Shown: piece by piece, positions 10,823 to 25,198 of the stretch | How the letters are laid out: each line of letters opens with the position of its first letter | How positions within the stretch are numbered: position 1 is the first letter of the stretch | Source of the DNA: a virus | IMG/VR virus record: IMGVR_UViG_3300045051_000334 | Span: 1-28,737 of that record | Strand: one strand, 5' to 3' | Length of the DNA stretch: 28,737 nucleotides | Made by a program: the position numbers and the translations under genes | The notes under the pieces: generated by a model | What the model was told of the DNA's origin: nothing | What the model saw: only the letters and a program-made list of their open reading frames with translations | Databases searched by the model: none

Positions 10823-11719
10823 TTAGAAGTTGTACGCCTGGATGCGGAGGGTGGCGTTCGCGTTGCGGAAGAACGGGCAAGCGCGCTCGTACACCAACCA
10901 CTTCATCATGCGGCCATCCAGCTTGGGCTGAACGGTGAGGGGCTCGCGCTCCACCATGCGGCCCAGCTCGACGCTGTCCATCACATGGATGGAGCCAGTG
11001 TCCACGAGCGGGGACCACACGACGTTCAGACCCAGGGCGCTCTTCACCATGCCCGTCTCCTGCACCTCGCGGGTGCCGAAGTTCAGGTAGAAGAGGAACG
11101 CCTGCTGGGAGCTCAGGATGCCCAGCTGATAAGGGTTCATCAGCAGGGTGTCGGGCTTGTACGACTTCTGACGCAGGAGGCCAGCGACCTTGAGGATGTC
11201 AGCCGCCGTGGGGTCCGTAGCCGTCGGGAGACGGTACAGGCCCGTGGTGGCGCTGTAATCCGGGGCCGGGCCCGGAGCAGGAACGGCGTTCGGGGCGATA
11301 GCCTTGTCGAACAGCCGCAGGAACTCCAGGTCCTCCTTGACCGCCATTTCGCGCCCGGCATCGTTGAGGATGTCGGCGGCGGCGTCGAACTGGGCATCGA
11401 GCAGGTCAGCCATGTTGATTTCGGGGTGGACCTCGAAATCATAGGGCGTGACGATGACCCAGGGGTAACGCACGACCTGGTCGATTTCCTCGCCGTAGCG
11501 GGGGATGACCAGGGCGCGTTGACGCGCCTTGCGCTGGTAGCGGTACGACGGGCCGTTGTCGAAACGGTCGATGGGGAACAGCTTACGTCCGAAGCTGTCC
11601 TCAATCATCGTTTCGGCGATGGGCATGATAGCGGCTTGCGCCATGTGCATGGCGAAGTCCTTCTCGCTCATCTCGGCCTGCGCTTGCATCAGCATCGAGA
11701 ACTTGTCTTTGTTATTCAT
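10823..11719 (-). CDS. Major capsid protein (HK97-like fold inferred)
   Basis: I choose ATG at 11719 (298 aa, MNNKDKFSMLMQAQAEMSEK) because the ideal site GGGAGGTG lies 6 nt upstream; the GTG at 11728 is part of that ribosome site. The body has YQRKARQRALVIPRYGEEID, a TLLMNPYQLGILSSQQAFLF segment and VWSPLVDTGSIHVMDSVELG, then ERACPFFRNANATLRIQAYN. The pattern 'lv.NP......l', 'DTGSI.v.D', 'ep..v......' and a final beta strand is typical of HK97-fold coat proteins. Context is also right: protease, scaffold-like and decoration-like genes come first, each with an excellent ribosome site, and a terminator follows. It should be the most abundant virion protein. Confidence 0.82.
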   Translation of the reverse strand: MNNKDKFSMLMQAQAEMSEKDFAMHMAQAAIMPIAETMIEDSFGRKLFPIDRFDNGPSYRYQRKARQRALVIPRYGEEIDQVVRYPWVIVTPYDFEVHPEINMADLLDAQFDAAADILNDAGREMAVKEDLEFLRLFDKAIAPNAVPAPGPAPDYSATTGLYRLPTATDPTAADILKVAGLLRQKSYKPDTLLMNPYQLGILSSQQAFLFYLNFGTREVQETGMVKSALGLNVVWSPLVDTGSIHVMDSVELGRMVEREPLTVQPKLDGRMMKWLVYERACPFFRNANATLRIQAYNF

Positions 11720-11724
11720 GTTCT

Positions 11725-11736
11725 TCACCTCCCTTC
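11725..11736 (-). promoter_or_regulatory. Strong ribosome binding site GAAGGGAGGTGA of capsid gene
   Basis: The 12-base box is identical to those before the decoration-like gene (12292-12303) and the scaffold-like gene (13232-13243). It decides the ATG at 11719 over the GTG inside the box. Confidence 0.8.
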
Positions 11737-12332: not shown

Positions 12333-13226
12333 TTACTTGTCCCGGCGGAAGATGCTGGACAGGTCCAGCGTTCCGACGGCCTTTTCGCTGGCGGTCGCGA
12401 CGCCCTCACCCGAGGGAGCCTTGCCAGCGAGGAGCACCACCTTCGCGCCCTTCTCACGGTCGAACGAGACCGTGGCGCGGGCGATGGCGGAGCCGGAGGC
12501 TTCGCCAGTGGCCTTGCCGCCCTCGGCCTTCGCAGGCTTGGCGGGCGCGGCGACAGCGGGCTTCGCGGTGGCGACAGCCAGCTTCTCGGAGAGCTCTTGG
12601 TTGGTCTTGGCCAGCTCGGCGACTTGCGTCTTGAGCTGTTCGACCTCCGACGGCTCGGAAGCGGTGGCGACGGAGGCCTTGGCTTCGGCTTCGGCCTTGG
12701 CTTTCGCCTCAGCTTCCTGCTTGGCCTTCTCCTCCTCAGCCGCCTTGGCGGCGTCGGCCTCGTTCTTGGCCTTCTCCTCCTCAGCGGCCTTCGCCTCGGC
12801 TTCCTGCTTGGCCTTCTCCTCCTCAGCCGCCTTCGCGGCCTTGGCTTCGTCGCTCTCCTCTTCGGAGGCGGTGGCAGTGCCCTTGCCCTTGCCTTCGGCG
12901 TCGTCCTCGTCCTCGTCGTCGTCCTCGTCGTCCTTGTACGTGTCGGCTTCGGCCAGGACCATGTGCTTCTTGGCCTCCTGCACGTCAGCCCAGCACTTCT
13001 CCATGTGCTCACGGGCCTTGGTCAGTTCGGCGGGGTCAACGCTCTCCTTGTGCTTCAGGCCCGTGAAGTTCATGTCCGCCTCAGCGTAGGCCTGCATGGC
13101 TTTGCCATGCGCGTCCTTCGCCTTGGAGAACACGGCCTGCTTGTCCACCTTGCCAGCCTGCTGTTCCTCGGCGGCGGTAGCCAAGCGGACCACTCCGGTG
13201 CCCTTCTCTACTTTCACTTTGCTCAT
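12333..13226 (-). CDS. Scaffold-like coiled-coil protein with Ala/Glu/Lys repeats
   Basis: I choose ATG at 13226 (297 aa, MSKVKVEKGTGVVRLATAAE), because GAAGGGAGGTGA sits correctly upstream; a GTG at 13235 lies inside that box. Near residues 100-112 there is a strongly acidic Asp/Glu run, then a helix built from three copies of AAEEEKAK plus QEAEAK or NEAD spacers. After that comes a coiled coil (EVEQLKTQVAELAKTNQELS). The C-terminus is Lys/Arg-containing and ends LSSIFRRDK. Elongated, acidic, helical proteins between prohead protease and coat are usually scaffolding proteins that guide capsid assembly and are then removed. A basic tail, as scaffolds use to contact the coat, fits. There is no sequence signature, so the role is inferred. 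Confidence 0.55.
   Translation of the reverse strand: MSKVKVEKGTGVVRLATAAEEQQAGKVDKQAVFSKAKDAHGKAMQAYAEADMNFTGLKHKESVDPAELTKAREHMEKCWADVQEAKKHMVLAEADTYKDDEDDDEDEDDAEGKGKGTATASEEESDEAKAAKAAEEEKAKQEAEAKAAEEEKAKNEADAAKAAEEEKAKQEAEAKAKAEAEAKASVATASEPSEVEQLKTQVAELAKTNQELSEKLAVATAKPAVAAPAKPAKAEGGKATGEASGSAIARATVSFDREKGAKVVLLAGKAPSGEGVATASEKAVGTLDLSSIFRRDK
12700..12850 (-). repeat. In-frame tandem repeat in scaffold-like gene
   Basis: On the plus strand TTGGCCTTCTCCTCCTCAGC recurs at 12721, 12766 and 12808, with spacings of 45 and 42 bases, both multiples of three. It encodes repeated AAEEEKAK units of a charged helix. The copies differ by a few bases. Confidence 0.75.
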
Positions 13227-13231
13227 GTGTG

Positions 13232-13243
13232 TCACCTCCCTTC
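13232..13243 (-). promoter_or_regulatory. Strong ribosome binding site GAAGGGAGGTGA of scaffold-like gene
   Basis: Third copy of the box; with the ATCCTAAA before it, it resembles the capsid gene leader (ATCCTTAAATGAAGGGAGGTGA). It decides the ATG at 13226. Confidence 0.75.
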
Positions 13244-13244
13244 T

Positions 13245-13970
13245 TTAGGATTTGCTACCCGTGATGGGGTAGCCTTGCGGAACTTCCACAAGGGAAGACC
13301 CGACCTTAACCTTCTGCGCGGCGGTAGCGAGGCTGGGGGCCTCATCTTCGGCCCTCGCAATGCGCTCGTTGTCCACCGAGGTGATGTCGGCGTTCTCGTC
13401 AGCAGGCATGCGGGTCAGAGCCGCACCCTTGAAGTTCAGTCCACGGAGGACGCGACCCTGGTGTGTCTGCACCGCCTGCTTGAACTTCACTTCCATCGAA
13501 AGGCGGGCGTACCCAAGCTGGGCACCGCGTTGCACCTTGAAGGCCACATCCGGGTACAGGCCCCGGTAGATGACCGCCGCGCACTTGATGTAGGGGCGGT
13601 CGTCGTCGGAGGGGTCGGGGTTCTCAACGAACACCGAATCGTAGATGTCGCCGACGATGGCCGGGAACTTGAAGTCGTGGTCGTAGTCGATGGGCTCACC
13701 GACTGGCGTACGCCAGCTAGGAATCTTCACGCCCTTCGTCTTCTCGAACATCGCCAACAGCTCTTCCTTGAGGAAGATGTCGCGGTTGTTGTTCTTGCCG
13801 ACGTGGCAGAGCTTGAAGGCGAAGTACAGGAAGTCGTCTTCCTTGACCTCGCGACCGATGAGCGAACTCGCCTGGCTGAACAGCCCAGCCTTGACGTCCG
13901 TGTTCATGGACGCCACGGCGATGCCGGACGGCAGGGTGGTGATTGACGAGTACAGCTTCAGCGATTCCAT
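13245..13970 (-). CDS. Putative prohead (capsid maturation) protease
   Basis: A 241-aa protein, ATG at 13970, with a weak ribosome site and only 3 bp after the preceding stop. Features recall phage maturation proteases: an early NNNRDIFLKEELLAMFEKTK segment ('N.nrD.f...EL'), then IDYDHDFKFPAIVGDIYDSV with a His at 98. A conserved-looking RLSMEVKFK follows (Ser158, Glu160), and GLNFKGAALTRMPADENADI lies near the end. In this group a His and a Ser, with an acidic residue, form the active site that cleaves scaffold and coat. His98 and Ser158 are my candidates. Position before scaffold-like, decoration-like and coat genes is as expected. Confidence 0.6.
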   Translation of the reverse strand: MESLKLYSSITTLPSGIAVASMNTDVKAGLFSQASSLIGREVKEDDFLYFAFKLCHVGKNNNRDIFLKEELLAMFEKTKGVKIPSWRTPVGEPIDYDHDFKFPAIVGDIYDSVFVENPDPSDDDRPYIKCAAVIYRGLYPDVAFKVQRGAQLGYARLSMEVKFKQAVQTHQGRVLRGLNFKGAALTRMPADENADITSVDNERIARAEDEAPSLATAAQKVKVGSSLVEVPQGYPITGSKS

Positions 13971-13973
13971 GGC

Positions 13974-14861
13974 CTACTTCAGGTAGATGCTGGCGATGGC
14001 GGTGAACGGGATGACCTGGTTGTTCACGCGGATGTAGTCGATGTTCACGTCGGCGTAGCCAGAGACCACGGTGCCATCGACCAGCGTGATGCTGACCAGC
14101 TTGCCGTCGTACGTCGGGTACACGACGCTCAGGGCGTTGGGTGTGCGCGTGACCGTAGGCGTGACCGTGGCAGTCGGCGTGGCGGACACGGTCGGCGTGA
14201 CCGTGCGGGTGGCCGTAGGTGAAGCAGTCGGCGTGACCGTACGGGTGGCACTGGGCGTCGCCGTGGGCGTGGCCGTGGGGCTTTCGGTGAAGGACGCCGA
14301 CACGGTGGGCGTCGCCGTGGGCGAAGCGCTGGGTGTAGCGGTAGCGGTGGCGGTCTTCGTCACGGTAGGCGTGGCCGTCGGCGTAGCCGTGGGCGTCGCA
14401 GTGCGAGTGGCGCTTGGCGTAGCCGTCGGCGTCCAGGTCGAGGTGGCCGTGAACGTCGGCGAGGCCGTACGGGTGGCTGTGAGGGTCGGGCTGACGGTGA
14501 AGGTCGGCGACGGGGTGTCGGTCAGGTTGGTCGTGAACTGGATGGAGAAGGCCGTGTTGTCCTGGTCTGACGAGCCGTAGCAGTAGTAGCCGAACGGCTG
14601 GAGGCAGTAGGCGGTGTTGGGGACCAAGCCCGACACGGTCAGGTGGTGTACCTGGCCGCAGGCTTCCGTTGAGGCGGCGGTGATGGAGAGGTTCGAGCAC
14701 GAGCCGCTGGCGTTGAAACGGGCGCTGGCGTTGTACTCCGGAACGTCCGTGCGCCAGTCGATGAAGACGGCGTTCGAGGACACCTGGTAGGTGACGTTCG
14801 TGATGGTCGCGTTGGCAACCACCGGGAGCATCAAGGCGAGTAGCAGGCTCAACAGTCTCAT
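13974..14861 (-). CDS. Exported FN3-like protein with long Thr/Pro-rich stalk
   Basis: I choose ATG at 14861 (295 aa) because TGAGGA lies upstream and the protein then begins with a perfect signal peptide: MRLLSLLLALMLPVVANA, with Ala-x-Ala cleavage near residue 18. Residues ~19-112 look like a fibronectin-III-like sandwich (ATITNVTYQVSSNAVFIDWR ... VSGLVPNTAYCLQPFG ... FTTN) with several cysteines, suggesting folding outside the cytoplasm. About 125 residues of TPTATP-type repeat follow, probably an extended, possibly glycosylated stalk. The last ~50 residues (GKLVSITLVDGTVVSGYADV, then VIPFTAIASIYLK) look like a small SH3/Lsm-like beta barrel. Signal-peptide proteins are rare within phage head modules. 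Function is unknown; adhesion or surface display is inference. Confidence 0.75.
   Translation of the reverse strand: MRLLSLLLALMLPVVANATITNVTYQVSSNAVFIDWRTDVPEYNASARFNASGSCSNLSITAASTEACGQVHHLTVSGLVPNTAYCLQPFGYYCYGSSDQDNTAFSIQFTTNLTDTPSPTFTVSPTLTATRTASPTFTATSTWTPTATPSATRTATPTATPTATPTVTKTATATATPSASPTATPTVSASFTESPTATPTATPSATRTVTPTASPTATRTVTPTVSATPTATVTPTVTRTPNALSVVYPTYDGKLVSITLVDGTVVSGYADVNIDYIRVNNQVIPFTAIASIYLK
14139..14520 (-). repeat. Degenerate minisatellite encoding Thr/Pro/Ala stalk
   Basis: The plus strand shows repeated GTCGGCGTGGCCGTGGGCGT-like units of six codons, read on the minus strand as TPTATP, TVTPTA and similar. The copies are diverged but keep the reading frame. Such tracts change length easily, and the antisense frame stays open only because of this repeat. 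Confidence 0.7.
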
Positions 14862-14902
14862 GGCGTCCTCAGGGGGTCTTGGTCGTGCTGTTTCATTCAA
14901 AG

Positions 14903-14937
14903 GTGTACAATGCAAACTAGTACCTTCTCAGGTACTA
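14903..14937 (-). promoter_or_regulatory. Short hairpin plus GTTTGCATTGTACAC motif upstream of exported-protein gene
   Basis: TAGTACC and GGTACTA (14937-14931 with 14924-14918) form a 7-bp stem with a 6-nt loop, overlapping the preceding stop codon. Directly downstream is GTTTGCATTGTACAC, which matches 13 of 15 bases with a site at 25184-25198, also just before a gene. No T-run follows, so a terminator is unlikely. A regulatory site is possible, but I have no functional evidence. Confidence 0.35.
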
Positions 14938-15720
14938 TAGTCCGCATCCGGTCATCATGCGCAGAGGAACCGCTGTGCTGGGCACCGGAGTAGGCGTCGG
15001 GGTGGCTCCAGAATCCAACAGCTCCACCAGAGACCCGGTCATGGTCGAGCTTGAAGAGCACGACGCCGTGAACGTGATGGTCTGGTTGTAATTGCTCGTA
15101 GAACCCGGCGAGTAGTCCATGAAGCCGAATCCCTTGGGGTTGTTCTGAGCTGAGTAGAAAACGTACCGCGAGGTGCCAGGGTTGGCAGACAGGGTCCAAG
15201 TCGCCCCGTTGCAACCACCAGCCGCGATGTGCCCCACACCAACCACCGTCCCGGAAGAGGTGGATGGCGTGAGCGTGATGTTGATAGGGAAAGGGGAACC
15301 CGTTGGCGAACCGATGGTACCGTTCGTAGCACCAGTGCCGTTGACACCGGAGTACGAGAAGGCCATCATGCCGACCGGGCCAGCAAAATAGCCGCCAGTT
15401 GGTGAGTACGTGATGTTGAACGTGCCAGTCGCTGGGCTCTGAAGAACGTAGATGTCAGTGAATGTGTTCGACTGGCTGTCCTTTCGGACAGCCGTCATGG
15501 TGGCACCGTTGAAAGCCGCATTCCAGCTCGTGGCGCTGTTGGTCTCGTAGGCGATGGCGACCACGAGCATGAGGTTGCCACTGCCAGCACCCTGGGTGAA
15601 GGCATGCGTGATGGTCCCAGTACCAGGCGCGGCGTCGGTGAAGCTGACAGCGTCGCTGTTATACGACGGAGCCGCGTTCAGACCGACGGCGAGCGCCAGC
15701 AGTAGGGACAGCAGACGCAT
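14935..15720 (-). CDS. Exported beta-sandwich protein
   Basis: A 261-aa protein, ATG at 15720 overlapping the preceding TAA (TAATG). It starts MRLLSLLLALAVGLNAAPSY, a signal peptide whose first ten residues are identical to those of the next gene's product. The mature part is Gly/Ser/Thr-rich: GSGNLMLVVAIAYETNSATS, a W-x-x-x-F-N-G-A-T-M-T-A-V segment, DIYVLQSPATGTFNITYSPT and AFSYSGVNGTGATNG. This succession ('LlVV.v', 'ynG...t.v', 'yvl..P..Gt.ni', 'ysGv') is common in secreted beta-sandwich domains of bacteria and phages. A Pro/Thr linker ends the protein. Role unknown: adhesion, decoration or host-surface modification are all possible. Confidence 0.7.
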   Translation of the reverse strand: MRLLSLLLALAVGLNAAPSYNSDAVSFTDAAPGTGTITHAFTQGAGSGNLMLVVAIAYETNSATSWNAAFNGATMTAVRKDSQSNTFTDIYVLQSPATGTFNITYSPTGGYFAGPVGMMAFSYSGVNGTGATNGTIGSPTGSPFPINITLTPSTSSGTVVGVGHIAAGGCNGATWTLSANPGTSRYVFYSAQNNPKGFGFMDYSPGSTSNYNQTITFTASCSSSSTMTGSLVELLDSGATPTPTPVPSTAVPLRMMTGCGL

Positions 15721-16065: not shown

Positions 16066-18633
16066 TTACTTCGTCTGGTGGTACGTGGCCAGGATGCGCA
16101 CGTCGTTGCTCGCGGTCCCGGCGCTGAGCTGGGCGGTCCAGTTATTGGCGGCGGTCGTCTGGACCAGCGAGGTCCCGACGGGGAGGACGAAGCCGCCGCC
16201 GTTGGCCGCGAGCCAGCACGAGAACACCACACTGCCAGCCGTGGCGTCACGGAAGTCCACCCTCACCGTCTGCGTCGAGCCATTGCTGGCGACCAGGCTG
16301 TCGATGTCGTTGAAGATGCCGGATGAACCAGCGGCCACGAGCGTGGTCTCAGAATTGGTTGACAGCGTGATGGTGGCTTTGCCTTTGATTTCTCGTGGGC
16401 CGTTCAGGGCCGTGACCATCTTGCCACTCTTCGTGGTCATGAACGGCGTCATCGCTCCGTCGGAATTGGTAGCCAGGTTGGCGGTGATGGTGAGCGTCTT
16501 GCCTCCGATGTACACCGGATTACCAGCGGCTGTGACGGTGGGGCTCACGGGGCCCTGCACCTGCATGCCGCTGGTGGTGCCGCGCAGGCGGTCCCACGTG
16601 GAACCGTTGAACACCATCGGGTAGGTCTCAGCGGCGACGAGGTTCGGCTCGATGGTGTCGCCATCGGCGGTGCCATCGCCGTTGCCGACGACGTACAGAC
16701 CAGCACCAGTCGCGGTGATGTACACGGGCGACGTGGCCGTGTTGCTCACGTTGACAGCGCCAATGTAGGCGGTCCCGGCGGTGAGGCTGACGTTGCCGCC
16801 ACCGTTCACCACCGTCCACGTGCCGGATTGCGTCACCGCGTGGGTGCCCACTGTCACCGTGTTCGTGATGGAACCAGCGATTTGCACGGCGTTGGTGGCC
16901 GTATTCGTGACAGTCACGCCGCCGGAGAGCGTGGCCGTGACAGTGGGCATGCTCGTGATGGTAACGCTCGAAAGAGCGGTGCCACTGATGCCGACAGCTC
17001 CGATGTAAGCAGTGCCAGCGGCCAGCGAAGGCAGTCCGGCGAGGTTGCCGCCGTTGTCGAGGGCAAGGTGCTTGGCCAGGTTGCTCCCGGTGACGCCACC
17101 GATGACCAACACACCGTCAGTCCAGGCCCCGCCATCGGCGGCGGTCCCGACAATGCCGACGGTGTTGGTGATGGACCCGGCCACCTGAACAGCGTTGGAC
17201 GCGGTATTGGTGACGGTGATGCCACCGCTCAACGAAGCAGTCACAGGCGGCATGCTCGTGATGGCCACGGCATTCGTGGGCGTGGACACAGTGATGTACA
17301 CAACCAGCGGTCCGCTGGCGATGGAAGTGCCCCACACACGCATGTTCGCCAGGCCAGCCGAATTGATGTAGTAGATGCCGTCACCATCAGTGTTCGAAGC
17401 AGTGGTGACGACGGTGTCGTTGTCGGCCCGTACGGCACGAATTGGCGTCCAATTCGTGCCGTCCACCGTCCCCTGGAATTCGACGGAGCCGACGGTAGTC
17501 TGCCACAAGAGCTGGACGGCCACGGTGCCCTGGCCGTTGATGACGCCAGCGCCGATGCCGTTCCCGGCGGCGTTGATGAAGCCGTAGTTGGTCAAGTCAT
17601 CGGCGTTCACAGTCGAGGTGATGCCGACGGCACCCAGGATGTTCGACCCGGAAGGCAGGCTGGACCCGCTGGAGATGACGACAGGGGCGCTGTCGATGAC
17701 GGCCTGGTCGCCGCTGTAATACGGTCGCCCGTCGGCGAAGGTGTTCGCCACCCGCAGGTCGCCAAAGGTCGTGCTCTCCAGACGGCGCATGTGGGCGGTG
17801 CCGTCCCAGGCATACAGCAAAGCCGACGTGGCCAGGCCGTTGGTGCTCGCGGTGGGCGTGTCCCAATTCCACGACACGGTGTTGTTCAACGTGGCCGCAC
17901 TGGTGGTGAGGGTAGCCAGCTGTCCGATTTGCGTGGTCTGGTTGGCCGCAGTGGCGTCGCCGCCGCTCCCACCGTTGGTGCTCACGAGGAGCTTACCGTG
18001 CTGGTCGAACTGGAGCCTCGCGACGTTGCCAGTGGTCAGGGTTACGCCACTAGCATTGTACACGCCATAGGGCATAGAGCCAGGGAAGAGGATGGCAGAG
18101 GTGTTGTCGCCAGCACTGCCCAGGTAGGTCCGACGCCACGTCCCTGTCCCGGAATCGTAGCCCATGGGCAGGCTGAAGACGGTCTGGCCTTGCGTGGTGC
18201 CACTGGTGGTCGAGATGGTCGAAGTGGACGTGACCTGCAGTAGGGTGCCTTGGCTGAGTGTCCCGGCCACGATGGAGACGGGGAACACGGAACCAGCCGT
18301 GACGGTGATGTTGCCGCTCTTGACCGTGACGGTGAGCGACCCGCCAGCTGGCGTGATGGTCAGGCCAGACGCAGACGTGGTCATGGTCAGGCTTCCGCCC
18401 GTCACGTTCACGTTCCAGTTGCCGTACTGGCCGACGTACCACTGGCCGTACTGCCCGACGTTCCAGAGGCCGTTCTGCGTCGCGCCGAAGTTCGGCGGGA
18501 GGTTGTTGATGGACACCGACCAGTTGCCGTACTGCTGAGCGGGTACGTACGTGTTGACCACGTTGACGTCCGTCGCCGCCGCGCTCGCGAGTGAGGCCAC
18601 CGACAAGAGCAGGGCCAAGAGTGACTTGCGCAT
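16066..18633 (-). CDS. Large exported beta-repeat protein, adhesin/fiber-like
   Basis: An 855-aa protein, ATG at 18633 behind GGAGGAAG. It begins MRKSLLALLLSVASLASAAA, a complete signal peptide. Residues ~35-75 have tandem GQYGxWxV units rich in Trp and Tyr. Beta-repeat text follows, including two similar blocks at about 455-600 (ITSMP-VTA-LSGG-TVTNTA-NAVQ-AGSITNTV). A middle domain (VGSVEFQGTVDGTNWTPIRA ... GIYYINSAGLANMRVWGTSI) resembles modules seen in phage fibers and capsid-surface proteins. The C-terminus (GIFNDIDSLVASNGSTQTVR ... VRILATYHQTK) looks like a carbohydrate-binding-type beta domain. Such text normally marks virion fibers, but a secretion signal is unusual. It may act on the host surface or as a processed virion protein. 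Confidence 0.75.
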   Translation of the reverse strand: MRKSLLALLLSVASLASAAATDVNVVNTYVPAQQYGNWSVSINNLPPNFGATQNGLWNVGQYGQWYVGQYGNWNVNVTGGSLTMTTSASGLTITPAGGSLTVTVKSGNITVTAGSVFPVSIVAGTLSQGTLLQVTSTSTISTTSGTTQGQTVFSLPMGYDSGTGTWRRTYLGSAGDNTSAILFPGSMPYGVYNASGVTLTTGNVARLQFDQHGKLLVSTNGGSGGDATAANQTTQIGQLATLTTSAATLNNTVSWNWDTPTASTNGLATSALLYAWDGTAHMRRLESTTFGDLRVANTFADGRPYYSGDQAVIDSAPVVISSGSSLPSGSNILGAVGITSTVNADDLTNYGFINAAGNGIGAGVINGQGTVAVQLLWQTTVGSVEFQGTVDGTNWTPIRAVRADNDTVVTTASNTDGDGIYYINSAGLANMRVWGTSIASGPLVVYITVSTPTNAVAITSMPPVTASLSGGITVTNTASNAVQVAGSITNTVGIVGTAADGGAWTDGVLVIGGVTGSNLAKHLALDNGGNLAGLPSLAAGTAYIGAVGISGTALSSVTITSMPTVTATLSGGVTVTNTATNAVQIAGSITNTVTVGTHAVTQSGTWTVVNGGGNVSLTAGTAYIGAVNVSNTATSPVYITATGAGLYVVGNGDGTADGDTIEPNLVAAETYPMVFNGSTWDRLRGTTSGMQVQGPVSPTVTAAGNPVYIGGKTLTITANLATNSDGAMTPFMTTKSGKMVTALNGPREIKGKATITLSTNSETTLVAAGSSGIFNDIDSLVASNGSTQTVRVDFRDATAGSVVFSCWLAANGGGFVLPVGTSLVQTTAANNWTAQLSAGTASNDVRILATYHQTK

Positions 18634-18645
18634 GACTTCTTCCTC

Positions 18646-19026
18646 CTACTTTTCGCCGACGCGGACGCTGACCATGCCAGCGTTGCGCTTGAGGTAATCC
18701 TGGAAAGGCTTCGTGTTCTTGAGGGCGTTGGCCATGGGCCCCGTGCCCAGGGCGATGGCCTTGGCCGTGTCGCGGGTGAAGAGCAGGCTGGCCTCAGCGT
18801 GGCCGCGATGGTCCTCAATCCACTTCTTGGCATCCTCGACCGTCCACTTCTCGCGGTCGAACATGTAGGTCTGGACTTCGGTGCTGTCCTTGCCGGGGCG
18901 ACGACCGATGACGGCCTTGATGCCCTTCTCGGCGTCGATGTTGATGGTCCTGAAGCTCTCCTTGGCGAAGAGCGACGGGTCAGCCTGACGGACGCGGACG
19001 TAGTTGGCGGTCTTCTCAATCGGCAT
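18646..19026 (-). CDS. Small phage head-module protein, 126 aa
   Basis: ATG at 19026, overlapping the preceding gene by 11 bp. The central part is SFRTINIDAEKGIKAVIGRR, then a TEVQTYMFDREKWTVEDAKK segment and a W-I-E-D-H-R-G end. I recall similar text ('...v.s..Fdk.kwt.eeA.kWl..H') in small phage proteins and in domains attached to phage head proteases, but I cannot name a family with certainty. It is probably a mixed alpha/beta globular protein. Position between the MuF gene and the exported cluster gives no firm role. Confidence 0.6.
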   Translation of the reverse strand: MPIEKTANYVRVRQADPSLFAKESFRTINIDAEKGIKAVIGRRPGKDSTEVQTYMFDREKWTVEDAKKWIEDHRGHAEASLLFTRDTAKAIALGTGPMANALKNTKPFQDYLKRNAGMVSVRVGEK

Positions 19027-19312
19027 GGTAGAGCCCCACAGTGGACATTACGAAGTCTGGTGTAGTGTTGCTGTTGACGAAGTTGACGACCGCGATGAAG
19101 TGCTCGGGAGTGCCTGGGGCGAGCACAACAGGTCGGGCCTCACACTGTCCGTCAGTCAAGTTGTGTGTGAGGACAGTTAGGGAAGAGTTAAACAGCCGGA
19201 AGAGCTTAGACCTCATCTTGTGGTCGTAGCTCTTGACGGGCGTCTGCTTTCCGGGGCCCTTGAATAAGGCCACCCCTACAGCCTCACCCTCTTTAAAGAG
19301 AAATGCTAACAT
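19016..19312 (-). CDS. Protein of unknown function, 98 aa
   Basis: ATG at 19312 has AGGTG 6 nt upstream; the GTG at 19321 overlaps that site. The protein starts MLAFLFKEGEAVGVALFKGP and ends NFVNSNTTPDFVMSTVGLYH. It looks like a small beta-rich globular protein with no membrane helix. It follows the stop of the MuF-peptidase gene and overlaps the next gene. A role as an inhibitor or chaperone of the peptidase domain is conceivable from position only. Confidence 0.55.
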   Translation of the reverse strand: MLAFLFKEGEAVGVALFKGPGKQTPVKSYDHKMRSKLFRLFNSSLTVLTHNLTDGQCEARPVVLAPGTPEHFIAVVNFVNSNTTPDFVMSTVGLYHAD

Positions 19313-19321
19313 GACGTACAC

Positions 19322-21247
19322 CTAGAAAAGGGGCTTCACCGGAGACGTCGGGAATTCTCTGCCGTCGAACACATGCTCCTTGAGGAGTTCGTACTTCCTC
19401 TGGAGCACCGGGCTTCCCTTGAACAAGCCCGGCGTGTGTATGTAGGCGGCTACGCCGTCGGCGATGTCCTCATCGTACCGCTCCTTGGGCGACTTCGTGC
19501 GGTACTTCATGAAGTTCTGTTCGCCGTACTCGGACACGAAACGCTGATGACCAGCGCCAGGCTCAATTGTGGTGGCGTTGGCCCACTCGTCGTGGAACTT
19601 CTTCCACCCAGTGTTGCCTCTGATGCCTTCGCGCACACGCATCTTGTAGTCGAGCCAGTGGCCCATCTCGTGAGCGACCGTGCGGTTCTTGAATTCGTCG
19701 CTGGCGCTTAAAGAGCCATTGTGGAGATGAACCGTCGATGTGGACAGATTGTAGAACCCGCCGTTGTTGGGCTTGTTGAGGTCGCGGCTCACCCTGAGCA
19801 CATGCCCAGACTGCTTCAGCTCGTCGAAGTGCTTCGTGCCCTTGAAGGCGTCCAAGTGAGCGTCGAGACGGGCGAGCATGTCGAGCTCATTCTTCATCTT
19901 CTTGGTGTCGCGCAGACGGTCCCACCACTCACGGTTCGACCAAGCACCCTCGACGTTGACGTCGTGCTTCTGTGAGAAGTGGGTGGTCGTGAGGTTGGCC
20001 AGGTTCTTCATCTTCCTGCCGCCAACGGTCCCGGCCTTCAGGTCATCGACCTTGTCGAGGAACGTGGTCTCCTTGACATAGGTGTCCATGGCCTCGGGCG
20101 TGACGGTGGCGAGCAAGGATGCGGCTTCATTGTCGTCCCTGGGGACGTAATCAACGTCACCGAAGTCACGCCGCTCAGCCGCGTCTAGGTCGGTATTGAG
20201 GCCGTCGTTGTTCGGGTTGCCCTCGAACAGGTCTGGTTGCTCGCCATCCGGACCGTCACCGCCGCCATCTTCTCCGCCGTCCTCGGAATCCTCGTCTGGA
20301 GGAATCGGGTCGAGGTCGCAACGACAGAAGAAGTGAACGTCGCCTGGGTCGTACTCGAACTCGTCCAGGTACTTGGGCGGCTCATCGTTCAGCTCAAGGC
20401 ACTGGTCGCAGGTCAGGTGGTCAACGACGGCCCGCCACTTGTACTTCCATTCGGCCCCGGCGTTGTCCTTCTCCGCCTGCTCGAACGCCTTGATTTGAGC
20501 ATCCTGACCAACGCGGTACAGGTCGCTGGTGAAGAGGTCCGTGCGGTAGAACTGGCCCATGAGGCTGGAGGCCAGGGCTGTGACGAAGTCGTCTTTGGTG
20601 GCGGCTGGTTGCTCAAATGAACTGGCGACATCGTCGTGGATGTCGTCGAGCAGTCCGTCCCAATAGGTGCCCTCGCTATCGGCATACCCAGACACCACGT
20701 CGTTCTCGTCGGCGGTGTCGATTTGCGGTGCCGTAGCCTTGAGGGCCCGCACGACCTTCTCGCCGCCAGACTTGTGTCCGGCGCGGTAGGCCTCCCTGAC
20801 GTACTTGACCGACAGGTTGTTGAATGGATTCTTTGACTGCTTAAGGGTGGCCGCGACGTTGGCCAGGAATGCCTGCTTCTCGATGTCATCGACTTCAAAG
20901 GCATCCGCGTCGCCTTCATCGGCGACGGAAATCTGCGTGTTCTTGCCACGGACATGCGCCTCAAAGTGGCGCACAATCTTGCCCACCATGTCCTGGTACA
21001 ACGACTTGAGGGCGTCGTTGTGCGAGACCATGACGGGCGAGAGGCCCAGGCGCTTAACGTGTGGGTGGGTTGAATTGCGAACGCGGACGGCGTGTTGTAC
21101 AAACTCGGTGGTGGCGTCGGCGTAGGCAAGGTCTATCCGATGCTCTCGGAGAAACCGCCTGTGGGTCAGACCGAAGAGCTCGTCGCGTGTGAGGTCGTGG
21201 ACCTCGCCCTTAGCGAGCTTTTCGAGAGTTGCGCCGACGCTTAGCAC
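19322..21247 (-). CDS. MuF-like minor head protein fused to HExxH zinc metallopeptidase domain
   Basis: I choose GTG at 21247 (641 aa): GGAGG lies 6 nt upstream, and it overlaps the portal end by 38 bp. The N-terminal ~310 residues form a helical head-morphogenesis protein ending in the MuF signature: W-R-A-V-V-D-H-L-T-C280-D-Q-C283, then a GDVHFFCRCDLDPI stretch (His305, Cys308, Cys310). MuF proteins bind the portal and are carried in the capsid. A flexible acidic Gly/Asp linker (~318-350) leads to a C-terminal domain with VAHEMGHWLDY, i.e. His526-Glu527-x-x-His530, and a downstream YDEDIADGVAAYI with Glu593 or Asp597 as candidate third zinc ligand. MuF proteins with C-terminal enzyme domains are a known class of phage-borne polymorphic toxins. 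The catalytic motif looks intact; its target is unknown. Confidence 0.85.
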   Translation of the reverse strand: MLSVGATLEKLAKGEVHDLTRDELFGLTHRRFLREHRIDLAYADATTEFVQHAVRVRNSTHPHVKRLGLSPVMVSHNDALKSLYQDMVGKIVRHFEAHVRGKNTQISVADEGDADAFEVDDIEKQAFLANVAATLKQSKNPFNNLSVKYVREAYRAGHKSGGEKVVRALKATAPQIDTADENDVVSGYADSEGTYWDGLLDDIHDDVASSFEQPAATKDDFVTALASSLMGQFYRTDLFTSDLYRVGQDAQIKAFEQAEKDNAGAEWKYKWRAVVDHLTCDQCLELNDEPPKYLDEFEYDPGDVHFFCRCDLDPIPPDEDSEDGGEDGGGDGPDGEQPDLFEGNPNNDGLNTDLDAAERRDFGDVDYVPRDDNEAASLLATVTPEAMDTYVKETTFLDKVDDLKAGTVGGRKMKNLANLTTTHFSQKHDVNVEGAWSNREWWDRLRDTKKMKNELDMLARLDAHLDAFKGTKHFDELKQSGHVLRVSRDLNKPNNGGFYNLSTSTVHLHNGSLSASDEFKNRTVAHEMGHWLDYKMRVREGIRGNTGWKKFHDEWANATTIEPGAGHQRFVSEYGEQNFMKYRTKSPKERYDEDIADGVAAYIHTPGLFKGSPVLQRKYELLKEHVFDGREFPTSPVKPLF

Positions 21248-23444
21248 CAAAGGCCTCCGGGCGGGTCCAGGACAGATGACGCACGTCTTCTGCGATGGCC
21301 GCAGTGCTCACTCCGCGCAGGAGTTGCTTGGCCCGCGAGGGCGGCTCTTTCTGAGGCACTTGGTTGGGCGGTTGACCGACCTGGCCGTCCTGCATCTTGC
21401 GCATCATCGCCTTCTCGCGGCCCTTGCGGTACATCTCCTGCTCGTAGTTGTGTCCAAGCTGGTCGAGCAAGGTCGTGAAGGAGATGGGCAGTTCCGGCGA
21501 CCCGACCGACTTGGCCAGGTTCGAGAAGGCGTTGATGAGGCCGATGACCGACTGCTCGCCATCGAGCTCCTGCTGGGCCCACTTCATCTTGATTTCGGGA
21601 AGCTTGCCATTGACGGTCAGCCAGCCACGACGCTCAAGGAAGCGGTTGAAGATGCGGGTGGTGATGATGCGGCTCGCGTCGTTCTGCATCTTCTTCAGAC
21701 GGAAAATCATCGTCTGGAACTGTGCCCGGACGGACGCGAAGTTGCCGCCGTCGCCCCACAGGAAGGTCTTGGGGATGCCCAGCACGGCGATGGTCTGCTC
21801 GTTGGCGTAGGTCAGCGGGTAGTCGATGCGGAGGGGCTTGCCATCCATGCCGTGGATTTCGATTTGCCAGTGGTACGGCGTGGTGAGCACGGACTTGCGG
21901 TCGTACTCCGACAGGAGCGCGGCGGCTTGGTCAATCATCTCCTGGCTCGGCACCTGGAGACGCGTGACTTTGTCAGTGCCGACCTTCATCTGGATGATGG
22001 GGTTGGCGTACCGTTCGGCATTCGCGGCCAGGGCCTCTTCCAAGGTCCGCTTCAGCTTCAGGTGGCGGAAGGCGGGGAAGAAGTCGCTGATGCCGTAGGT
22101 CATCCATTCAGGGCCCTGCCACTTCCAATGGATGATGTCAGGGATGTTGAGCGGTGACGCATCGACGCCGATGCGCTTGACCAGCTCCATGAGGATGACC
22201 TCGCCGACGTCATTACGGGTGACCCACACGGCGCTCGGGTTCAGCGTCTGGATTTCGGCGATGGTGTAGCGCTTGTCGCGGACCAGCTCGTCGCGCTTCT
22301 TGGCAGTCGCCAAGAACTCGTTGTACAGCGGCAGGCCCTTCTCGGCATGCCACTTCTCGACGGTCATGGCCTTCTTGGCTTCCTTGTCCTTCAGAAGCGA
22401 AGGGTCAACGGAGAGCGAAGCGGCGGTGCCACGGAAGATGACGTTGACCGCAGTCTTGATGCGGTCGAGGTAGTCCGATTCCGGCTTCGCCTGTTCGTAG
22501 GCCTGGGCGTAGCGCTTGCGGATTTCCTCAAGCTGGTCGTTGTGGTCGAGGATTTGCGTCAGCACTTCCTCATTGACCCCGCCGTCGCCGTCGTCCATCT
22601 CCCAGCCATCGACGATGTTGGCGAAGCCGTCGCCGAAGAGCATGGCCTCGGCGGAGTAGTTGATAATCCACGACTGGAGGTCGAGCTTCACGCTCAGACG
22701 CGCCAGCTCCAGCTTTATCTTGTTCGAGACGAACTGATGGATGGGCGTGAGGTTCGTCGGCGGGACGGCCTGCTCGGCGGGCATGTCCTGGCCTGGTTGC
22801 CATTGCGTCTTGTCGGTGTTCCTCCCGACATCAGTGACCTGTGGCTGGTCCTGCGCGGGCGAAGGCTTGCGAGCGCCAGTGGGCGTACCCTCACCGTTGC
22901 CGTCGGCGGCGATGGCCAGACCGGGGACTGGCTTGGTCTTCGGAGCGCCGGGCTCTTCGCTCGCTGGCATCGTGGCCGGATGCGGCATGATGGGAGGGCC
23001 GGAGGCATCGAGCTGGCCAGACTTGGTCTTCTCCTCCTCGACCAGCTTCTCGTACTCCTCAATCCACTCCGAATAGTCGGCCTTCACCCAATCGGGCCAT
23101 TCGTCCTCTTCGATGATGACATCGAAGTCCATGCCGCTCAAGGCGAACTCGGTCTTGATTCGGATAGCGGCGTTGACGATGGGGTCCGTGGTGAAATACT
23201 CGAACGCCAGCAGGTAGCGCTGGACGCGATTGGAGGGGACCTCCAAAATCGGCATCGAGTAGCCACGGAAGGGATAGGTCCATCGCTGGAAGACCTTTCC
23301 CTTCTGCACGGGCATGGATGACTTTGAGCCAGCTGGGTCGGCGTACGGGTCTTCGAACCTGTCGCTCGCAGTGACAAGCCTGCCCAGGCCGATGCCTGAG
23401 GCCAGGTTCTTCACTCGGTCAAGGAGGGAGGGACTGGGAGCCAT
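21210..23444 (-). CDS. Portal protein
   Basis: A 744-aa protein, ATG at 23444 with a weak site (TAGG). Portal-type text includes the early EVPSNRVQRYLLAFEYFTTD, DPIVNAAIRIKTEFALSGMD, a mid segment around GDGFANIVDGWEMDDGDGGV, then TQTLNP-like text (IAEIQTLNPSAVWVTRNDVG), WQGPEWMTYGISDFFPAFRH and RIITTRIFNRFLERRGW. It forms the dodecameric channel for DNA packaging. The following MuF gene is the standard partner. Residues ~141-235 are a Pro/Gly/Ala-rich, probably disordered insertion between two structured parts. The C-terminal ~60 residues are basic and Gln/Pro-rich. Confidence 0.85.
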   Translation of the reverse strand: MAPSPSLLDRVKNLASGIGLGRLVTASDRFEDPYADPAGSKSSMPVQKGKVFQRWTYPFRGYSMPILEVPSNRVQRYLLAFEYFTTDPIVNAAIRIKTEFALSGMDFDVIIEEDEWPDWVKADYSEWIEEYEKLVEEEKTKSGQLDASGPPIMPHPATMPASEEPGAPKTKPVPGLAIAADGNGEGTPTGARKPSPAQDQPQVTDVGRNTDKTQWQPGQDMPAEQAVPPTNLTPIHQFVSNKIKLELARLSVKLDLQSWIINYSAEAMLFGDGFANIVDGWEMDDGDGGVNEEVLTQILDHNDQLEEIRKRYAQAYEQAKPESDYLDRIKTAVNVIFRGTAASLSVDPSLLKDKEAKKAMTVEKWHAEKGLPLYNEFLATAKKRDELVRDKRYTIAEIQTLNPSAVWVTRNDVGEVILMELVKRIGVDASPLNIPDIIHWKWQGPEWMTYGISDFFPAFRHLKLKRTLEEALAANAERYANPIIQMKVGTDKVTRLQVPSQEMIDQAAALLSEYDRKSVLTTPYHWQIEIHGMDGKPLRIDYPLTYANEQTIAVLGIPKTFLWGDGGNFASVRAQFQTMIFRLKKMQNDASRIITTRIFNRFLERRGWLTVNGKLPEIKMKWAQQELDGEQSVIGLINAFSNLAKSVGSPELPISFTTLLDQLGHNYEQEMYRKGREKAMMRKMQDGQVGQPPNQVPQKEPPSRAKQLLRGVSTAAIAEDVRHLSWTRPEAFGAKRRRNSRKAR

Positions 23445-23584: not shown

Positions 23585-24058
23585 CTAGGAGGACCACTGC
23601 TCCTTGAGGGCCACCTTCACCTTGCGGGTCAGGGTCTCAGTGAGCTTGTTCGTGGCGTAGTTCACCTCGCGGTCGAAGTCGTCCTTCTCCTCGCGGTACT
23701 CGTCGGCGGTCTTGCCGGAGCGGCTGGGCATGTTGGGCTTCGCGAACTCCTCGATGGAGCGGCGGGCCTCCACGGCGATGCGCTTCTCGGTCGGGCGGAT
23801 GCCGTTGTCGCGGAAGTGCTCGACGAGCTGGTCGGCGGTGTCGTTGATGACGCTCTGGCTGAAGCGGTAGTCCGCTCCTTTGGAGCCACGGTCGGGGCCC
23901 TTGCTCCCACCGCCGCCACCCTCGCCGAACTTGCCATCCTTGCCGCGAGGATGTTTGGATTCGTCCCAATCGCCAGCGGCGACGGCGATGCCGGACGCGG
24001 CACCGCTCATGGCCGTGGCCAGGCCCTTGATGCGGTCCTTACGCGGGGTGATGCTCAT
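23585..24058 (-). CDS. Tagged protein of unknown function (GDWDESKHPR motif), 157 aa
   Basis: ATG at 24058 overlaps the preceding stop as ATGA. An N-terminal basic/Ala segment is followed by GDWDESKHPRGKDGKFG (29-45) and a Gly-rich linker. This is the same tag as in the 313-aa protein two genes upstream. The rest is charged and helical (INDTADQLVEHFRDNGIRPT, then RRSIEEFAKPNMPSRSGKTA), ending in Lys-rich text and SS. Similar 'HPR...G.F' tags occur in phage proteins near portal and MuF genes. It may be a virion-packaged protein; the role of the tag is unproven. Confidence 0.65.
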   Translation of the reverse strand: MSITPRKDRIKGLATAMSGAASGIAVAAGDWDESKHPRGKDGKFGEGGGGGSKGPDRGSKGADYRFSQSVINDTADQLVEHFRDNGIRPTEKRIAVEARRSIEEFAKPNMPSRSGKTADEYREEKDDFDREVNYATNKLTETLTRKVKVALKEQWSS

Positions 24059-24221: not shown

Positions 24222-25163
24222 CTATTCCTCCTCGGGGTTGTCCCAGCTGTCGCTGGGGAAACTGAAGCTGAATTTCTTGTTCTGGTGTCCAGTGAAGTTG
24301 TCCTTCGCCTGGGGGTCGAAAGTGAGGCCGATGGAGCGTTGCACCTTGCCAGCATGGTCGCCGTTGGTGTGATAGATGAGACCACGGCCCTTGTTGACGT
24401 GCAACACCGACGTCTGGTCGTTCTTCTTCCCCCACTCCCTTACTTTCTCGGGGGTGACGCCGTTGGTGTGAAAGACCATGATGGTCGGCTCACCGGAGCC
24501 GTACTTGCCGACGCAGGGCATGAACGTAGCGCCAGACTTGACCAGCTCCTTGATGAAGCCCCGCATGCGCGTGGCGTTCTCAGCCGTTGACACCGCCTGG
24601 CTCATCGGGTTCGCCGCCGTCACCATCGAGAAGTCACCCTTCTCGACGTGGAACTTGAAGGCGTCGTCGCTCATGTTCATGACCATGCCCTCGTTGGCGT
24701 TGGGCTGGCCCGACCCGACAAAGACGCCGTCGGAGCCGTCAGGGGAGCTCAGGCCGTTCCCCTTGTGGTAGAGCCAGCTCCCGCTCTTGGTCTCGACCAT
24801 GTCGTAGTGGGCGCTCTTCTCCTGGCCCTCGAAGTGGGCCTCGTGGACCGGGAGAAGCCCGGAGAACTCGTGGTCCACCATCATCACCTTGTCGTCGCCG
24901 TACATGTTGCGGGTGCTGGGCTTGCCGACGAGGTTCTTCCGCTCACGGAACGACAGCTCGCGCATGGTCTTGACTTCTTTAACCACACCACGCTCACCGT
25001 CGTGACCCTTCACGTGCTCGCCAGCGCTGGGCGAACCGCCACCAGACCCGAAGCGTCCGCGCTCATCGCGGGGATGCTTGGTCTCGTCCCAGTCGCCGGA
25101 GGCCTTAGCCAAGCCCTCGGCGAATGCGGCGGTCATGTTGCGATGTCTTGCCAGTCGGTCCAT
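24222..25163 (-). CDS. Tagged protein with DUF3293-like domain, 313 aa
   Basis: I choose ATG at 25163 because GAGGAG lies 6 nt upstream; the frame continues 11 codons further without a better site. Residues 23-39 are GDWDETKHPRDERGRFG, nearly identical to the 157-aa protein's tag, then a Gly/Ser linker. Residues ~178-256 read FSMVTAANPMSQAVSTAENA, a GATFMPCVGKYGSGEPTIMV stretch and EWGKKNDQTSVLHV. This matches my memory of the DUF3293 pattern ('iTA.NP......eN...n', 'G......G....EpS.lV', 'lg..f.Q.av'). Residues 45-170 are unassigned, beta-rich and contain several His residues. Neighbourhood beside portal and MuF genes hints at a virion-associated protein. Confidence 0.65.
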   Translation of the reverse strand: MDRLARHRNMTAAFAEGLAKASGDWDETKHPRDERGRFGSGGGSPSAGEHVKGHDGERGVVKEVKTMRELSFRERKNLVGKPSTRNMYGDDKVMMVDHEFSGLLPVHEAHFEGQEKSAHYDMVETKSGSWLYHKGNGLSSPDGSDGVFVGSGQPNANEGMVMNMSDDAFKFHVEKGDFSMVTAANPMSQAVSTAENATRMRGFIKELVKSGATFMPCVGKYGSGEPTIMVFHTNGVTPEKVREWGKKNDQTSVLHVNKGRGLIYHTNGDHAGKVQRSIGLTFDPQAKDNFTGHQNKKFSFSFPSDSWDNPEEE

Positions 25164-25183
25164 CGTGTGCTCCTCTGTTAAGA

Positions 25184-25198
25184 GTGTACACCGCAAAC
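25184..25198 (-). promoter_or_regulatory. Intergenic motif GTTTGCGGTGTACAC
   Basis: Matches 13 of 15 bases with the motif at 14903-14917, and lies about 20 bp before ATG 25163, after the stop of the 119-aa gene. It contains the palindrome TGTACA. It could be a late-promoter or operator element. Two copies only; evidence is weak. Confidence 0.3.

What the first reader, a model, noticed from the sequence alone, without database searches (positions are those of the whole stretch)
19322..21247. MuF minor head protein with an intact C-terminal HExxH peptidase domain
The MuF-type cysteine signature (C280xxC283, H305, C308xC310) is followed by an acidic linker and a domain with HEMGHWLDY and a downstream D-E-D-I-A-D-G-V-A-A-Y, resembling zincin peptidases. 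Portal-bound MuF proteins travel in the capsid, so this enzyme could be delivered into the next host with DNA. MuF-effector fusions are a known polymorphic class. The peptidase version here and its possible partners (98-aa and 126-aa genes just downstream) deserve attention.
Basis: partly seen in the sequence, partly recalled or inferred. Interest (0 to 1): 0.7.

Follow-up and report, generated by a model that had tools for sequence, protein, structure and literature searches.

The report
Phage head protein carrying a metallopeptidase
A poorly known contractile-tailed phage carries, next to its DNA portal gene, a MuF-type minor head protein with a probable zinc-peptidase domain at its end; such fusions are a known class thought to be injected with the phage DNA, and this is a very divergent new example rather than a new kind of system.

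Summary
The gene is real and intact: minus strand, 19322-21247 (GTG) or 21250 (TTG), 641/642 aa, overlapping the portal gene. The MuF region is supported by several weak but agreeing profiles and by the CxxC...HxxCxC motif. The C-terminal domain has TVAHEMGHWLDY: bare HExxH arises in 7% of composition shuffles, AHExGHxxD in 5e-6. Five zincin-type profiles hit this spot weakly, and E594 (DEDIADG) is a plausible third ligand. The fold is not settled. Two AlphaFold2 models are poor (pLDDT 41, 46), although structural rows listed for the second are mostly zincins at low Z. Outside the motif, similarity to other phage zincins is no better than shuffled flanks. No close relative was found. A separate prohead-protease candidate makes 'head maturation protease' less likely. 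Best reading: a virion-packaged effector peptidase, a divergent member of the known MuF-metallopeptidase class (20% of predicted MuF toxins in Jamet 2017). Delivery, toxicity and a partner are unproven; the downstream 98- and 126-aa genes match no immunity family. In Gordonia phages the MuF C-terminus swaps between zincin and EndoU nuclease, and the small downstream gene swaps with it. That supports the effector reading for the class and makes it testable.

The parts
19322..21247 (-). MuF-type minor head protein with C-terminal HExxH domain (641 aa from GTG; 642 aa if TTG at 21250)
   Evidence: PF04233 E 7e-5, phrog_115 E 2e-8
20312..20503 (-). MuF core with the C-x2-C ... H-x2-C-x-C motif (residues 250-313)
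   Evidence: collinear with Bacillus phage G gp15
20201..20299 (-). acidic Asp/Glu/Gly-rich linker (residues about 318-350)
   Evidence: sequence
19325..20140 (-). C-terminal region with the predicted zincin-type metallopeptidase domain (residues 371-642)
   Evidence: weak hits PF10263 0.024, PF18818 0.041, phrog_24857 7e-4, phrog_87 0.057, capP 0.01; low-confidence models
19658..19672 (-). HEMGH (residues 527-531), inside TVAHEMGHWLDY: two predicted zinc ligands and the general base
19469..19471 (-). E594 of DEDIADG, predicted third zinc ligand (ExxAD)
   Evidence: ungapped match to EWIAEG of actinophage MuF-zincins and ELYADA of polyvalent proteins; E590 of KERY is the alternative
21210..23444 (-). 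portal protein, overlapping the MuF gene
   Evidence: Portal_Mu E 0.004, phrog_2739 E 1e-3; Bacillus phage G portal E 5e-5
19016..19321 (-). next gene, 98 aa from ATG 19312 (101 aa from GTG); function unknown, possible partner
   Evidence: no family; not similar to the partner family of actinophage zincins
18646..19026 (-). 126-aa gene, probably head-associated
   Evidence: phrog_22834 E 0.0012; E 0.8 to a major head protein of phage S-CBS3
13245..13970 (-). candidate prohead protease, argues against the zincin having that role
   Evidence: homologue of a Microcystis phage MaeS protein (E 4e-8) lying between portal and major head protein; protease activity is my reading of the sequence
10823..11728 (-). 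major head protein
   Evidence: phrog_1650 E 6e-10, phrog_2522 E 8e-9

Best explanation
The protein is a portal-adjacent MuF minor head protein with a C-terminal zincin-type metallopeptidase. The MuF part probably binds the portal and brings a few copies into the procapsid (inferred from SPP1 gp7). The acidic linker separates it from the peptidase. At infection the protein, or the peptidase freed at the linker, would enter the cell with the DNA and cut one or more host proteins, helping take-over, counter-defence or the lysis-lysogeny choice. Shown: gene, MuF motif, HExxH motif, operon position. Supported but not shown: zincin fold and third ligand. Inferred: packaging, ejection, proteolysis, target.
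For: Intact frame overlapping the portal gene. MuF profiles. Extended zincin motif far beyond chance. Several zincin-type profiles hit the same spot. Structural rows listed for the low-confidence model are mostly zincins: anthrax lethal factor catalytic domain, PPEP-1, PprI, ArdC, abylysin. Other MuF-type proteins end in an HExxH domain: L005, Akkermansia phages Chantilly and Chambord, Gordonia phages Nyceirae, Phishy and Meyran, prophages L022-L029. Within Nyceiraevirus that domain alternates with a predicted EndoU nuclease while the MuF part stays 63-66% identical, and the small downstream gene changes with it, as expected of an effector slot. Literature: 20% of predicted MuF toxins have a metallopeptidase domain (PMC5576092); SPP1 gp7 is portal-targeted and non-essential for assembly (PMC6316719).
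Against: Fold confidence is poor (pLDDT 41 and 45.6); Foldseek gave nothing significant and its top rows were Bcl-2 proteins. With the motif held fixed, flanks score no better against phage-zincin profiles than shuffled flanks (best 39 of 1000). No partner gene is identified here. The likely syntenic counterpart in Bacillus phage G (gp15) lacks HExxH, so catalysis is not needed in every such protein. Nothing shows the protein in virions.
Confidence: 0.45

Rival explanations
1. The zincin is the phage's head maturation protease, cutting scaffold or capsid proteins during assembly.
For: Actinophage MuF-like proteins are annotated 'capsid maturation protease' and phrog_595/1522 are called head maturation protease. 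The gene lies between portal and capsid genes.
Against: The window has a separate candidate at 13245-13970, next to a scaffold-like gene, whose homologue lies between portal and major head protein in phage MaeS. In Nyceiraevirus the zincin is replaced by a predicted EndoU nuclease, and Arthrobacter EvePickles gp5 has no HExxH, so it cannot be essential for maturation there.
Confidence: 0.12
2. The zincin acts on the phage's own proteins: it cuts its MuF carrier or another virion protein, before or during ejection.
For: Autoprocessing by zincins is the main role proposed for polyvalent phage proteins (PMC5512222). A long flexible linker precedes the domain.
Against: No cleavage site or second cargo domain is seen; the peptidase is itself the terminal domain.
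Confidence: 0.2
3. The C-terminal domain is a zincin-derived structural or DNA-associated part of the head without relevant catalysis.
For: Bacillus phage G gp15, next to a homologous portal, shares the MuF motif and the extreme C-terminus but has no HExxH.
Against: The full AHExGHxxDY motif and a candidate third ligand are kept here, which implies selection for catalysis.
Confidence: 0.15
4. The HExxH motif is chance and the domain is not a zincin.
For: Poor models, no significant Foldseek match, no significant similarity outside the motif.
Against: Extended motif frequency 5e-6 in shuffles; five zincin-type profiles at the same place; order strand-strand-HExxH helix-later helix with E594 in both models.
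Confidence: 0.08

Closest known systems
MuF polymorphic toxins with a metallopeptidase domain (Jamet et al. 2017, PMC5576092)
   Same: MuF minor head protein next to the portal with a C-terminal metallopeptidase-type extension
   Different: Those predicted toxins were restricted to temperate phages and over-represented in Firmicutes prophages; this is a very divergent contractile-tailed virus fragment of unknown life-style, with no recognised immunity gene
Actinophage MuF-like/VG15 proteins with C-terminal zincin (phrog_1522/phrog_4415; Gordonia phage Nyceirae gp8, prophages L022-L029)
   Same: Position after the portal, CxxC...HxxCxC-type motif, about 600 aa, C-terminal VAHExGHxxDY and ExIAxG pattern
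   Different: About 20-27% identity over the C-terminal domain, not significant outside the motif; those have a conserved 72-103-aa partner gene downstream, the window does not
L005 and Akkermansia phages Chantilly/Chambord head morphogenesis proteins (phrog_4529-like)
   Same: MuF-type or minor head protein plus C-terminal HExxH domain
   Different: No significant sequence match to the window; third-ligand motif is ExxAR rather than ExxAD
Zincin MPTase domains of polyvalent phage proteins (Iyer et al. 2017, PMC5512222; PF18818)
   Same: HExGHxxDY motif and ELYAD-like third-ligand motif; probable virion delivery
   Different: They lie in giant multidomain proteins; the profile match here is below threshold (E 0.041)
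Bacillus phage G gp15
   Same: Directly downstream of a homologous portal; MuF motif (E 0.004) and C-terminal tail (E 0.03) align in the same order
   Different: No HExxH; 458 aa; no acidic linker

Membership tests
MuF minor head proteins (PF04233/TIGR01641) | C-x2-C ... H-x2-C-x-C motif in the MuF core | tested here: met
   residues 281-311
MuF minor head proteins (PF04233/TIGR01641) | profile score above the curated cut-off | tested here: inconclusive
   24.0 of 29.6 bits and 20.8 of 39.65 bits, though E 7e-5 and 3.9e-4; phrog_115 E 2.3e-8
MuF minor head proteins (PF04233/TIGR01641) | gene directly after the portal gene | tested here: met
   overlaps the portal gene 21210-23444
MuF minor head proteins (PF04233/TIGR01641) | portal-bound, present in virions | not testable with these tools
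   needs virion proteomics
Zincin-type metallopeptidases | HExxH in an abxHEbbHbbc-like context | tested here: met
   TVAHEMGHWLDY; AHExGHxxD in 5e-6 of shuffles
Zincin-type metallopeptidases | third acidic zinc ligand downstream | tested here: inconclusive
   E594 in DEDIADG fits ExxAD; E590 is an alternative; no reliable model
Zincin-type metallopeptidases | zincin fold | tested here: inconclusive
   pLDDT 45.6; VIA rows mostly zincins but Z at most 5.2; Foldseek not significant
Zincin-type metallopeptidases | metal-dependent proteolysis | not testable with these tools
   needs a biochemical assay
MuF polymorphic toxins | MuF N-terminus with a C-terminal effector-type domain | tested here: met
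   (domain type as above)
MuF polymorphic toxins | adjacent immunity gene | tested here: inconclusive
   98/101-aa gene has no family; no similarity to actinophage partners
MuF polymorphic toxins | temperate phage | not testable with these tools
   28.7-kb fragment holding mainly structural genes
phrog_4415/phrog_1522 actinophage peptidases | sequence similarity beyond the HExxH motif | tested here: not met
   113 of 1000 flank shuffles score as well
Head maturation protease | the only candidate protease of the head module | tested here: not met
   separate candidate 13245-13970 with a portal-X-capsid counterpart in phage MaeS; that protein's protease activity was not tested

The most novel reading that the evidence does not exclude
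The domain is a separate, undescribed clade of virion-delivered zincin effectors used by a deep lineage of contractile phages distantly related to Bacillus phage G in portal and MuF protein, with its own partner in the 98-aa gene downstream; phage G keeps a version that lacks HExxH.
Probability: 0.2. Interest if true: 0.6.

Novelty: new member of a known kind. Interest (0 to 1): 0.38.

Why it matters
MuF-peptidase fusions are predicted to be injected enzymes, but I found no report of an experimental study of one. This case extends the class to a very divergent contractile phage. The comparison made here shows that in closely related, culturable Gordonia phages the MuF C-terminus alternates between zincin and EndoU together with a matching small gene. 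That makes the question 'effector or head protease?' directly testable.

Tried and rejected
Direct searches for relatives of the whole protein, its C-terminal domain and the portal in viral contigs and phages gave nothing close. Genome-contig scans gave no relative. Two AlphaFold2 runs on the C-terminal domain stayed at low confidence. Foldseek on the second model gave no significant match, so the VIA zincin rows are weak support only. I dropped the claim that the window domain belongs to phrog_4415 or to the polyvalent MPTases after the flank-shuffle control. I looked for an immunity or partner match for the 98/101-aa and 126-aa genes and found none. The Bacillus velezensis plasmid pAD3 has a homologous portal followed by a protein without CxxC...HxxCxC or HExxH, with weak head-maturation-protease hits, so it is not a counterpart of this gene. 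Relatives by taxonomy are not available for a virus record.

Full report
Observation. The gene lies on the minus strand at 19322-21247 (GTG) or 21250 (TTG) and encodes 641/642 aa without a stop. It overlaps the portal gene, and the next two genes follow without a gap. The window is a complete but fragmentary IMG/VR virus record of 28,737 bases. It carries portal, MuF, major head protein, tail sheath, tape measure, a LysM protein and a baseplate hub protein, so it is a contractile-tailed phage. Its sheath is only 23-29% identical to named phages and its portal only 22.5% to phage G, so it is very divergent.

MuF part. PF04233 matches residues 250-313 at E 7e-5 but below its cut-off; phrog_115 minor head protein at 2.3e-8; TIGR01641 at 3.9e-4. 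C281, C284, H306, C309 and C311 form the motif. Bacillus phage G gp15, directly downstream of a portal homologous to the window's (E 5e-5), aligns over the same motif (E 0.004) and over the extreme C-terminus (E 0.03) in the same order. Shuffle controls give 4 of 2000 for the MuF region and 5 of 2000 for the last 130 residues. Phage G gp15 has no HExxH.

Peptidase part. HExxH alone is not remarkable: 6.9% of shuffles of this protein contain it. AHExGHxxD occurs in 5e-6. SprT-like, MPTase-PolyVal, phrog_24857, phrog_87 metallo-protease and the defence protease capP all hit the same stretch weakly. Across phage zincins the order is a G-x-Y strand, AHExGHxxDY, then ExxA[DE]; the window has GGFY, TVAHEMGHWLDY and E594-D-I-A-D. 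With the 12-residue motif held fixed and the flanks shuffled, the real flanks are not clearly better for any of five profiles (39 to 812 of 1000 shuffles as good). So zincin identity rests mainly on the extended motif. AlphaFold2 with six sequences gave pLDDT 41 and 45.6. Foldseek was not significant. VIA-align 2 on Foldseek's list ranked zincins first (lethal factor catalytic domain Z 5.2; PprI, PPEP-1, ArdC and abylysin Z 2.9-3.6), which agrees with a zincin core but is below the level at which Z is trustworthy.

What other phages show. L005 and Akkermansia phages Chantilly and Chambord have MuF-type or head-morphogenesis proteins ending in HExxH domains. Five IMG prophage loci (L022-L029) and Gordonia phages Nyceirae, Phishy and Meyran have MuF/VG15-like proteins ending in a zincin. 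Gordonia phages Dogfish and Ewald, of the same genus Nyceiraevirus, keep 63-66% identity over the first 333 residues. Dogfish then has an EndoU_bacteria domain (E 6e-4, below the curated cut-off), and Ewald has the same kind of C-terminus, 82% identical overall. Arthrobacter phage EvePickles has a short version with neither. The small gene after the MuF gene changes with the C-terminus: the zincin phages, L022, and the stand-alone metalloproteases of Mycobacterium and Gordonia phages (Pharaoh, Adzzy, Steamy, Anon, LoneWolf, Darrell) are all followed by homologous 72-103-aa proteins (most blastp links 1e-4 to 1e-25; phrog_4347 E 2.4e-18 for Nyceirae gp9), whereas Dogfish and Ewald share a different one. 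This is what an effector slot with a cognate partner would look like, and it is hard to fit with an essential head protease, although these genes are annotated 'capsid maturation protease'. The window's downstream genes match neither kind.

Maturation protease. The 241-aa protein at 13245-13970 is homologous (E 4e-8) to a Microcystis phage MaeS protein lying between portal (phrog_2739, the family hit by the window portal) and major head protein (phrog_2522, the family hit by the window capsid protein). Its position, and the acidic lysine-rich scaffold-like gene next to it (12333-13235), suggest that it is the prohead protease. That is my inference, since no protease family matched.

Known context. 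MuF proteins with metallopeptidase domains are described: 20% of 191 predicted MuF toxins, restricted to temperate phages (PMC5576092). Zincins are the commonest domain of polyvalent phage proteins, with autoprocessing proposed (PMC5512222). SPP1 gp7 is targeted to the procapsid by the portal and is dispensable for assembly (PMC6316719).

Conclusion. This is a divergent new member with a probable, not proven, zincin fold, most likely an injected effector peptidase. Delivery, activity, target and partner remain open.

Noticed in passing
L035, L044, L045 (Gordonia phages Nyceirae, Phishy, Meyran) versus L036, L046 (Dogfish, Ewald): Within genus Nyceiraevirus the MuF C-terminus alternates between an HExxH domain and a predicted EndoU nuclease, and the small downstream gene changes with it.
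   Followed up: partly
L038-L043 (Mycobacterium and Gordonia phages gp2-gp3), L022:6222-6500: A 72-103-aa protein family (phrog_4347 in Nyceirae) follows the zincin whether it is fused to MuF or stand-alone: a candidate inhibitor, immunity or chaperone partner.
   Followed up: partly
window 23585-24058 and 24222-25196 (-); L034:4432-6909: A motif WDExxHPRxxxGxF near the N-terminus of two window proteins encoded upstream of the portal recurs twice in a zincin-bearing protein of L034 (826 aa); possibly a shared virion-targeting or processing signal.
   Followed up: no
L049:5239-6612 (Bacillus phage G gp15): Un-named gp15 of phage G looks like a MuF protein with a C-terminus related to the window's but without HExxH.
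   Followed up: partly
window 13974-14915 and 14935-15720 (-): Two proteins with nearly identical signal-peptide-like starts (MRLLSLLLAL), one with a long Thr/Pro/Ala/Ser repeat, lie between MuF and capsid genes.
   Followed up: no
window 16066-18633 (-): An 855-aa protein with repeated YGNWxV/YGQWYV and VTNTxxxxVxI units and a signal-like start lies just after the MuF cluster; no convincing family match.
   Followed up: no
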